Assembly (NCBI GenBank): GCA_002632355.1
Contig: NSJJ01000001.1
Coordinates: 186,001-250,000, forward strand
Length of the DNA stretch: 64,000 nucleotides
Origin: Sulfuricella denitrificans
GTDB taxonomy: Bacteria; Pseudomonadota; Gammaproteobacteria; Burkholderiales; Sulfuricellaceae
Direction of reading: 5' to 3'
Positions 52,489 through 54,560 of this stretch are shown one piece after another. Numbering within the stretch: position 1 is the first letter of the stretch; every line of letters starts with the position of its first letter. A model generated the notes under the pieces. The model saw only the letters and a program-made list of their open reading frames with translations, had not been told where the DNA came from and searched no databases. Made by a program: the position numbers and the translations under genes.

Positions 52489-52536
52489 GCCTAATGTGAA
52501 GCTAAGGGGCGATGCGACGCAGGCGCAGCGTTAGAC
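52489..52536 (-). repeat. attC-like site (short, degenerate)
   Basis: Minus strand GTCTAAC-GCTGCGCCTGCGTCGCATCGCCCCTTAGCTTCAC-ATTAGGC. Confidence 0.65.
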
Positions 52537-52612
52537 GACATTTTGTTGTCCTTTTGTTCTTAACCTTGTCTCAAGGTATGAAACCCAATCCGCGCTGAAT
52601 TCAAGAGAGGAA

Positions 52613-52706
52613 CTGGCGGAAAGGGAAAACCGCCAGGGTCGGGTCTTGAATTATCACATATTTAAACGGACTCTAAGTTTTATACGATGATTCAAGACCT
52701 GACCCC
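52613..52706. repeat. REP/MITE-like palindromic element
   Basis: Hairpin CTGGCGG/CCGCCAG (52613-52636) and terminal inverted repeats gggtcGggtcttgaat (52636-52651) / attcaagacctgaccc (15 of 16 matching). Confidence 0.6.
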
Positions 52707-52723
52707 GTGCCCTACCTTCATTT

Positions 52724-52981
52724 TTAATCGTTGGGCTTTGCAATGAGCGGGAATTGACTAGGATTAAGGATTGACTCAAGCGCTAAATCAACATCGAGTA
52801 GTGGCCAGTAGAGATGGTTTTTGCTTGGCCTCTCTACGGTTGTAATTTCATCAATGGTAGCTTGCTTGAACCAGGGGAATTCAGAAAACGCAACAAAAAC
52901 CTCCTCGTCATCCAACAGCAGCCAGAACCCTTTATTTGAGGCGAGCGAAACTTCAATTTCCGAAGTGCGTGTGCCAAGCAT
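52724..52981 (-). CDS. DUF2442 domain protein
   Basis: MLGTRTSEIEVSLASNKGFWLLLDDEEVFVAFSEFPWFKQATIDEITTVERPSKNHLYWPLLDVDLALESI, DUF2442 pattern; ATG at 52981. Confidence 0.85.
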   Translation of the reverse strand: MLGTRTSEIEVSLASNKGFWLLLDDEEVFVAFSEFPWFKQATIDEITTVERPSKNHLYWPLLDVDLALESILNPSQFPLIAKPND

Positions 52982-53191
52982 GGACAACCTCCTCGAAAGT
53001 GTTGCTGAACCAATGAGAACGCTTCGCTCAATTGTTTTTGTGAAAGGCCTTGGTTCATTGCCAATTCAATGTTCGGTTCGAGCCAGAATTTGGCTTCACC
53101 ATCAGTGTGAGAAACGTGAATATGAATATGTAGCTCTTCGCGAGAGAAGAATAAAGAAACGAAAAGAGCCTTCACGGAAAACGGTAGGAGC
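52953..53191 (-). pseudogene. DUF4160 gene with two frameshifts and lost start codon
   Basis: Spliced across frames: PTVFREGSFRF/LFFSREELHIHIHVSHTDGEAKFWLEPNIELAMNQGLSQKQLSEAFSLVQQH/FEEVVHAWHTHFGN*; shifts near 53150-53157 and at the AAA run 52996-52998. Confidence 0.8.
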
Positions 53192-53270
53192 CGTTTCAAA
53201 ATCATAGCAGTTCTTGGCTATGCAACGTTAATTATGCCCAACGTTGGATGTGACCGGACGGGCGCTTGTG

Positions 53271-53353
53271 TTATTACCATAGGGATTGATCTCGCCAAGA
53301 ATATTTTTGCGCTGCACGGCGTGAATGAGAGCGGTAAGGCCGCGCTGGTCAAC
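53271..53353 (+). pseudogene. IS110-family transposase N-terminal fragment
   Basis: VITIGIDLAKNIFALHGVNESGKAALVNP matches the IS110-family DEDD transposase N-terminus; sequence then diverges. Confidence 0.75.
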
Positions 53354-53391
53354 CCCCAATTTGCCCAATGTCTATTCACGGGGAGGCAGGT

Positions 53392-53718
53392 TCACACGGC
53401 AGACGAAAAGCGATTTGGCTCTTTGCCTTCCTGAACAGCCCACACGATCAGGATGATCCAGCCAATTATTGGAATAAACCAGAGTAGAAGAAACCATCCA
53501 CTCCTGTCGGTGTCATGTAACCGCCGCGCTCCGACTGCCAAAGACGGCAGCAGAACTGCCAAGGAAAATAGCCCTGACACAGCTTCGCTCACCATGCCTG
53601 ATGCCGCAGATGCTAGAAATGTAAAAAGGAAAAACCACCAATACTCTGACCGGGTGGCTCGTCCTTCAAACGTCGCGTATTTTGAGAAGCATATGCTAAT
53701 GGATTCGCCGAACGTCAT
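53392..53718 (-). CDS. DUF805 family membrane protein (cassette-borne)
   Basis: MTFGESISICFSKYATFEGRATRSEYWWFFLFTFLA...GARRLHDTDRSGWFLLLWFIPIIGWIILIVW. Confidence 0.88.
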   Translation of the reverse strand: MTFGESISICFSKYATFEGRATRSEYWWFFLFTFLASAASGMVSEAVSGLFSLAVLLPSLAVGARRLHDTDRSGWFLLLWFIPIIGWIILIVWAVQEGKEPNRFSSAV

Positions 53719-53810
53719 TTGATTTCTCCTTTGATAAGTGTATTGGAAAAGCATAAATATTGCGGTTTCTGGCATCAACATCTTTAGAGAACAGTTTATT
53801 CAGATAGGGC

Positions 53811-53880
53811 GCCCAATTTTTAAGCTGTGGGGCGCAAGCCGCATCGCGGCGCAGCGTCACACACGAGTGCATTGTTATGA
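53811..53880 (-). repeat. attC-like site downstream of the cassette gene at 53883-54248
   Basis: Minus strand TCATAAC...GACGCTGCGCCGCGATGCGGCTTGCGCCCCACAGCTTAAAAATTGGGC; imperfect palindrome with GCCGC/GCGGC core. Confidence 0.6.
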
Positions 53881-53882
53881 GC

Positions 53883-54248
53883 TTATTTAACTTTGCACTT
53901 TCCATAATACTGGGATGGAAGCATCTCACCGAACATTACTGAATTTCTGCTATGAACAGAGTTGAGTTTGCGATCGATTGCTGTAGTCATGATATTGCCA
54001 GTTGAAGTTACCTCTAAAAATGCGAGTTGATCACTTGATTCGATTAGCTTCACTTCTGTACTTCCATTGTTACCAAGCAGATAGCTTTTCCCCGCTGCCT
54101 TATCGACTATGAAATTCAGTTCAAATTTCTCTTTAACCTTGTGGCCTCCCTCTTGGTCGCTATATCTGGTGTAGTTGCAGGAATATGTCGTTGTATCTGC
54201 GAAAGCTAGAGCAGGGAGCAGTAATAACAAGAATGCGGCCAGTTTCAT
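53883..54248 (-). CDS. Hypothetical secreted protein (first integron cassette)
   Basis: Signal peptide MKLAAFLLLLLPALAFA, then DTTTYSCNYTRYSDQEGGHKVKEKFEL; start at 54248 with AAAGGA RBS. Confidence 0.75.
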   Translation of the reverse strand: MKLAAFLLLLLPALAFADTTTYSCNYTRYSDQEGGHKVKEKFELNFIVDKAAGKSYLLGNNGSTEVKLIESSDQLAFLEVTSTGNIMTTAIDRKLNSVHSRNSVMFGEMLPSQYYGKCKVK

Positions 54249-54362
54249 TTTGTTGTCCTTTAGCACAACGTTGTATAGCCGACAAATCGGCAAATAAAAG
54301 CATATCGGTCAGTCTGATAATCTCAATCGCTGAGATAGCATGTTGTTTATTCATGATTCTTT

Positions 54363-54560
54363 GTGAACTGGATACTTATTGTGTCCGATAATCTTTCCAT
54401 ATCCGTTACTGCGCCAGAACCCCAAAAATGTATGAATCAGGTGCGGGATCGCATGCGGCTCAAGCATTACAGCCTGCGTACTGAAATGGCATATTCAGGC
54501 TGGATTAAACGCCATATTTTCTTTCACGGCAAGCGTTACCCAAAGTCAGTAAAGACGGGT
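54363..54560 (+). pseudogene. Truncated integron integrase (IntI), N-terminal SAM-like domain only
   Basis: LSISVTAPEPQKCMNQVRDRMRLKHYSLRTEMAYSGWIKRHIFFHGKRYPKSV matches the IntI N-terminus (D/NQVRDxxRLKHYSxRTExAYxxWIKRxIxFHGKRHP); catalytic domain absent. Confidence 0.85.

What the first reader, a model, noticed from the sequence alone, without database searches (positions are those of the whole stretch)
52489..54560. Fossil chromosomal integron: truncated intI divergent from a small decayed cassette array
The + strand ORF at 54363 reads as the first ~50 residues of an integron integrase and then diverges, with no catalytic domain. On its 5' side, four small genes lie on the minus strand, pointing away from intI as integron cassettes do: secreted hypothetical, DUF805, DUF4160/DUF2442, endonuclease V-like. 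attC-like sites with RYYYAAC/GTTRRRY-type cores separate them. The IntI fragment and divergent architecture are seen directly; the attC calls are by eye and several cores carry substitutions.
Basis: partly seen in the sequence, partly recalled or inferred. Interest (0 to 1): 0.85.

Follow-up and report, generated by a model that had tools for sequence, protein, structure and literature searches.

The report
Dead, eroded integron with leftover cassettes
A bacterial gene-capture platform (an integron) that inserted at this spot has lost most of its recombinase gene and its recombination sites are broken, so it is a fossil; relics like this are common, and the same genome still has three integrons with full-length recombinase genes.

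Summary
54363-54596(+) encodes the first ~60 residues of an integron integrase (best family IntI, E 4e-10), cut off before the catalytic domain. On its 5' side, minus-strand genes point away from intI and are separated by eroded attC sites. A covariance model built from 50 attC sites of this genome's other integrons and of relatives, scanned unfiltered over all 64 kb, ranks two predicted sites (53811-53880 and 52489-52536) first and second. Both have lost the crossover G (GTT to ATT). Two more sites are half-sites, one beside an IS110 remnant and one beside a REP-like hairpin. The DUF4160/DUF2442 pair is a confirmed cassette: homologues are bracketed by or abut strong attC sites in four relatives. 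In two congeners the flanking genes are adjacent, with no integron, so the relic is a ~3.6 kb lineage-specific insertion (50915-54546). It is flanked by ~62 bp imperfect repeats, and intI homology stops where one repeat starts. The genome also holds three full-length intI genes with arrays, one 20 kb away. A published survey reports about a third of intI genes as pseudogenes and more than one integrase gene in 20% of carriers. This is an ordinary, well-documented relic of low interest.

The parts
54363..54596 (+). Truncated intI: first ~60 residues of an integron integrase (homology to ~54,548), then host sequence to a stop
   Evidence: NF011946 4.3e-10, TIGR02249 7.4e-9; alignment with the three own full-length IntI ends at GKRYP
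54263..54269 (-). attI-like crossover (ACGTTGTGC) between intI and first cassette
   Evidence: ACGTT stands at the attI/cassette junction as in several related integrons; neighbouring attI sequence poorly conserved
53883..54248 (-). Cassette 1: secreted hypothetical protein, 121 aa from ATG, intact
   Evidence: 117 homologues, mostly 121 aa, 79% in Aeromonas, 78% in a Vibrio; absent from 399 other genomes of the order
53811..53880 (-). attC of cassette 1, eroded (R' ATTGGGC instead of GTTGGGC)
   Evidence: Best attC-model hit in the 64 kb window, 18.4 bits
53392..53718 (-). Cassette 2: DUF805 protein, 108 aa
   Evidence: PF05656 E 1.1e-27
53271..53355 (+). IS110-family transposase remnant where the left half of cassette 2's attC should be
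   Evidence: About 76-80% to IS110 transposase genes of Aquabacterium, Polaromonas and Cupriavidus
53236..53262 (-). Right half of an attC (CCGGTCACATCCAACGTTGGGC)
   Evidence: Matches right halves of own attC sites by eye; weak partial model hit at 3.8 bits
52834..53205 (-). Cassette 3, gene a: DUF4160, broken by two frameshifts relative to the homologue
   Evidence: Alignment with G001 homologue; PF13711 1.3e-9
52724..52987 (-). Cassette 3, gene b: DUF2442, intact
   Evidence: 94% identical to G001 homologue; PF10387 4.5e-14
52730..52736 (-). R'' core (GCCCAAC) of cassette 3's attC; rest of the site lost
   Evidence: Complementary to cassette 3's start GTTGGGC in 7/7 pairs; aligns to the attC start in G001
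52636..52705 (.). REP-like imperfect inverted repeat just beyond the R'' core of cassette 3's broken attC
   Evidence: 25-nt arms, 84% complementary; only place in this genome
52539..52554 (-). Leader and start codon of a lost cassette gene (AAAGGACAACAAAATG)
   Evidence: Identical 16-mer to the leader of cassette 1
52489..52536 (-). attC, shortened (GTCTAAC ... GCCCCTTAGCTTCACATTAGGC; crossover GTT changed to ATT)
   Evidence: Second-best attC-model hit in the window, 13.9 bits
52049..52477 (-). Probable last cassette gene: pyrimidine-dimer DNA glycosylase (T4 endonuclease V type)
   Evidence: PF03013 2.6e-24; starts 12 bases after an attC; no attC found after it
51107..52045 (-). OmpA-family gene inside the insertion; cassette or passenger not settled
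   Evidence: PF00691 2.3e-23; a 37% homologue in G003 follows an attC
54547..54608 (.). intI-side copy of imperfect direct repeat
   Evidence: ~70% to 50852-50914; 0 of 5000 shuffles as good
50852..50914 (.). MCP-side copy of the direct repeat, in the normal upstream region of the chemotaxis gene
   Evidence: Its core is conserved upstream of the same gene in G002 and G005

Best explanation
This is the relic of a chromosomal integron. An integron (intI, attI and a short cassette array) became inserted between a GGDEF/EAL gene and a chemotaxis-receptor gene. The catalytic part of intI was lost, before or after insertion, at the junction with host DNA. Without an integrase the recombination sites decayed: point changes at the crossover triplet, a transposase remnant and a REP-like repeat in place of attC halves, and one cassette gene reduced to its leader. 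In its working state it would have captured circular cassettes at attI by IntI-mediated recombination with folded bottom-strand attC (established knowledge of integrons). In its present state capture and excision are most likely impossible, and the surviving cassette genes are fixed chromosomal genes. Anatomy and synteny are shown; loss of activity and the order of events are inferred.
For: IntI fragment. No orphan catalytic half of this copy is seen elsewhere in the genome: the other hits lie in longer open frames. The two eroded attC sites are the top two hits of the 64 kb window with a model that never saw them; 51 kb of orthologous integron-free DNA gives at most 10.1 bits. The DUF4160/DUF2442 pair has attC at both ends in G001 (E 1.2e-6, 6.4e-9), and attC sites abut or lie close to the homologous stretch in G012, G013 and G021. 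Cassette 3's start and R'' are complementary in 7/7 pairs, cassette 1's in 6/7 with one wobble. Two congeners show the uninterrupted site. The array is AT-rich, 42-47% GC against mostly 57-61% in flanking genes. Three full-length intI genes with attC arrays exist in the same genome.
Against: Each eroded attC is weak on its own over the whole window (E 0.037 and 0.4). The attI is poorly conserved apart from the crossover. No attC was found after the Pyr_excise or ompA genes, so their cassette status is open. The model is home-made with rough E-values.
Confidence: 0.94

Rival explanations
1. The array is a CALIN that is still mobilisable: one of the three full-length IntI proteins elsewhere in the genome can act in trans on the remaining attC sites.
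For: Three full-length intI genes are present, one 20 kb away; the cassette genes other than DUF4160 and the lost one look intact.
Against: Both near-complete attC sites have lost the G of the crossover triplet and the other two are half-sites.
Confidence: 0.07
2. It never worked here: a fragment already lacking most of intI was carried in by illegitimate recombination from another integron. (A sub-case of the relic reading that differs in the order of events.)
For: intI homology stops where the ~62 bp repeat of host DNA starts; the fragment is only 44-61% identical to the three own IntI over the shared stretch.
Against: A later deletion of the 3' end of intI would leave the same picture; no donor was found.
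Confidence: 0.35
3. Chance: a fragment of an unrelated tyrosine recombinase next to ordinary small genes, with attC-like repeats seen by eye.
For: Single attC scores are low over the full window.
Against: IntI models beat the general recombinase domain; top-two ranking at predicted places on the predicted strand; cassette homologues flanked by strong attC; empty site in congeners.
Confidence: 0.02

Closest known systems
Chromosomal integrons with pseudogene or truncated intI (Nemergut et al. 2008, PMC2426708; Xanthomonas, PMC12444791)
   Same: Truncated intI next to a short array; coexistence with other intI genes; degradation frequent (nearly one third of intI genes pseudogenes, 20% of carriers with more than one integrase gene)
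   Different: Here the attC sites are also eroded, and the locus is absent from the same position in congeners
CALIN (cluster of attC sites lacking an integron integrase; PMC12444791, PMC9229058)
   Same: Array of cassettes without a functional local integrase, with intI genes elsewhere in the genome
   Different: An intI remnant is still attached, and only two near-complete attC sites, both weak, remain
The three full-length integrons of the same genome (C33:260002, C23:60697, C13:3961)
   Same: Divergent intI/array layout, attC of one sequence style
   Different: Those have full-length intI and mostly much stronger attC (mostly about 25-82 bits)

Membership tests
Integron | intI gene encoding an IntI-type tyrosine recombinase | tested here: inconclusive
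   N-terminal ~60 residues present and best matched by IntI models; catalytic domain absent, so a remnant only
Integron | attI site next to intI | tested here: inconclusive
   ACGTT crossover present between intI and cassette 1; flanking attI sequence hardly conserved
Integron | Cassettes separated by attC sites | tested here: met
   Two eroded attC as top two model hits, two half-sites, DUF4160/DUF2442 cassette confirmed in relatives
Integron | Cassette genes oriented away from intI | tested here: met
   All genes on the minus strand, intI on plus
Functional integron | Full-length IntI with catalytic residues in cis | tested here: not met
   Frame ends after ~60 IntI-like residues
Functional integron | attC with intact crossover GTT | tested here: not met
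   Both near-complete sites read ATT; intact GTT only in a half-site
CALIN | At least two attC sites called by IntegronFinder with no integrase nearby | tested here: inconclusive
   IntegronFinder not available; two weak sites by own model
IS1111-attC insertion | IS1111-type element with its own end joined to attC | tested here: not met
   Fragment starts inside the transposase gene; a related copy in G002 is preceded by a long non-coding stretch as in IS110 proper

The most novel reading that the evidence does not exclude
REP-type and IS elements preferentially enter folded attC sites in this lineage, and this is a regular route by which its integrons die: in this genome such elements sit in or beside attC sites in the relic and in two of the three full-length integrons.
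Probability: 0.08. Interest if true: 0.4.

Novelty: new member of a known kind. Interest (0 to 1): 0.2.

Why it matters
It is one clear example of integron death, with empty site, insertion boundaries, broken attC sites and surviving cassette genes all visible, in a genome where other integrons persist. It does not change what is known about integrons. Short or interrupted intI-like frames are frequent in the same order: roughly 28 of 66 matches among 61 genomes, counted by hand, uncurated and including contig-end cuts.

Tried and rejected
Rfam at gathering threshold gave only a tRNA in the window; a permissive scan of 51000-55500 gave nothing relevant. A strict RYYYAAC...GTTRRRY regex with end pairing found attC in the full-length integrons but none in the relic, because the crossovers have changed. 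A first attC model from 7 sites ranked the relic's sites 1st and 3rd only; the 50-site model gave 1st and 2nd. IS1111-attC insertion was considered for the IS110 remnant and dropped. The genome-contig scan with the GGDEF gene returned only distant relatives and did not name the organism. Plasmid searches gave only the IS110 remnant and one weak homologue of the secreted protein. A recent duplication of one of the own integrons was rejected: the fragment is only 44-61% identical to them.

Full report
What was checked. The finding claims a truncated intI at 54363(+) next to a small, decayed cassette array. Both parts hold. The 78-codon frame matches the integron integrase models NF011946 (E 4.3e-10) and TIGR02249 (E 7.4e-9), ahead of the general N-terminal recombinase domain PF13495 (E 6.2e-8). 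In alignment with the full-length IntI of the same genome it follows them to the motif GKRYP at residue ~60 and then diverges. No catalytic domain follows, and no orphan C-terminal half was seen elsewhere in the genome: the remaining hits of the IntI model lie in open frames of 251-370 aa.

The genome has three further integrons with full-length intI. The window is C33:186001-250000 of a 36-contig assembly. Full-length intI genes (327-359 aa as read here; 454-496 bits, cut-off 265) lie at C33:260002, about 20 kb to the right of the relic, at C23:60697-61641 and at C13:3961-4935. Each has attC-separated genes on its 5' side. Their attC sites share one style, roughly RYYYAACCC.GC..TCAA.CGGGAC-hairpin-GCCCCT.A.CTCTACGTTRGGC. 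The relic's fragment is 61, 57 and 44% identical to these three over the shared stretch, so it is not a recent copy of any of them.

attC test. A first model from 7 own attC sites was used to collect 50 sites from the own integrons and from integrons of relatives, none from the window. The model made from those was scanned over the whole 64 kb, both strands, without filters. The best two hits are 53811-53880(-), 18.4 bits, E 0.037, and 52489-52536(-), 13.9 bits, E 0.4. They are on the predicted strand, one directly after the secreted-protein gene and one directly before the Pyr_excise gene. Within 50900-54600 their E-values are 0.0021 and 0.023. By simple proportion, the top two of 128 kb of strand-space both falling in the ~2 kb array has a chance near 2 in 10,000 (own estimate). 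As a control, 51 kb of orthologous integron-free DNA from four congeners gave no hit above 10.1 bits. Sites of the full-length integrons mostly score about 25-82 bits, so the relic's sites are clearly eroded. Both have ATT where the crossover GTT should be.

Half-sites. Between DUF805 and DUF4160 only the right half of an attC remains (53236-53262, CCGGTCACATCCAACGTTGGGC). Beside it lies an ~85-bp remnant of an IS110-family transposase gene (53271-53355; up to 80% identical to plasmid copies in Aquabacterium and Polaromonas). It begins inside the coding region, whereas a related copy in G002 is preceded by a long non-coding stretch, so it cannot be filed as an IS1111-attC insertion. After DUF2442 only the R'' core GCCCAAC (52730-52736) remains, followed by a REP-like inverted repeat (52636-52705) found nowhere else in this genome.

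Cassette test. The DUF4160/DUF2442 pair is 71-90% identical at DNA level to loci in nine relatives. In G001 it is bracketed by attC sites at E 1.2e-6 and 6.4e-9; in G012, G013 and G021 attC sites abut or lie close to the homologous stretch. Alignment with G001 shows the cassette starting at the same base after GTTGGGC and ending at the same R''. In the window the DUF4160 gene carries two single-base insertions relative to G001 and is broken; DUF2442 is intact. As a circle, cassette 3's start GTTGGGC and R'' GCCCAAC pair in 7 of 7 positions; cassette 1's GTTGTGC and TCATAAC pair in 6 of 7, one a wobble. The secreted protein of cassette 1 is intact at 121 aa from its ATG, like most of its 117 homologues, with 79% identity in Aeromonas and 78% in a Vibrio, yet it is absent from the other 399 genomes sampled in the order. 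That is the patchy distribution expected of a cassette. A 16-bp leader identical to cassette 1's (52539-52554) stands directly before the last attC with no gene after it, most simply a cassette whose gene has been deleted (inference).

The empty site. In G002 and G005 the same GGDEF/EAL gene is followed after 158-179 bp by the same chemotaxis-receptor gene, in an otherwise collinear region. In G001 and G004 the GGDEF gene is followed by the next gene of the region. None has ompA, Pyr_excise, cassettes or intI there. The insertion in the window therefore spans about 50915-54546. It is flanked by an imperfect direct repeat of ~62 bp (50852-50914 and 54547-54608, ~70% identical; no shuffle of 5000 and no pair of about 3000 random window segments scored as high). 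The right copy lies in the normal upstream region of the receptor gene. The left copy starts where intI homology ends, which marks the junction. How the repeat arose is not settled. GC is 42-47% in the array against mostly 57-61% in the flanking genes.

How it most likely worked and what it is now. By established knowledge of integrons, an intact version would have captured cassettes at attI and expressed them from a promoter near intI. Now there is no integrase in cis, and no attC with both halves and an intact crossover remains. The surviving genes (secreted protein, DUF805, DUF2442, pyrimidine-dimer glycosylase, and perhaps ompA) are simply chromosomal genes. Mobilisation in trans by the other IntI proteins cannot be excluded but is unlikely given the crossover changes. 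Whether intI was truncated before or after insertion is open.

Comparison with what is known. A survey of genomes found nearly a third of intI genes to be pseudogenes and 20% of carriers to hold more than one integrase gene (PMC2426708). Xanthomonas shows truncated intI and attC clusters without integrase in many genomes (PMC12444791), and Shewanella commonly combines intI genes with CALINs (PMC9229058). In the 61 genomes searched here about 28 of 66 matches to the fragment lie in short or interrupted frames (hand count, uncurated, some at contig ends). The finding is therefore true and ordinary.

Noticed in passing
L033:9966-10949 (C33:259966-260949), L034:10695-11747 (C23), L035:3862-4941 (C13): Three integrons with full-length intI and arrays in one 3.1 Mb genome, inserted near sdhB/sdhE, recO and squalene-synthase-type genes (gene names by reading the translations).
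   Followed up: partly
L033:6963-7838; L034:16560-16640 and 17102-17229; window 52636-52705 and 53271-53355: Transposase genes, IS fragments and REP-like hairpins lie inside or next to attC sites in three of the four integron loci. Of about five places in the genome with the AAATCAATGGGGTCAGACTCGATTGATTT repeat, two are in integron arrays. Possible preference for attC, not tested across genomes.
   Followed up: partly
L033:3024-3311: Perfect tandem duplication of 144 bp upstream of sdhB, probably within sdhA; real or an assembly artefact not determined.
   Followed up: no
L035:4477-4536: Perfect tandem duplication of 30 bp (10 codons) inside the C13 intI gene.
   Followed up: no
window 50852-50914 and 54547-54608: Imperfect ~62 bp direct repeats flank the insertion; the left copy resembles the promoter region of the downstream chemotaxis gene. 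Origin unexplained.
   Followed up: partly
L150:1501-2529: In G003 a 37% identical OmpA homologue lies directly after a strong attC, so the OmpA gene of the insertion may be a terminal cassette too.
   Followed up: partly
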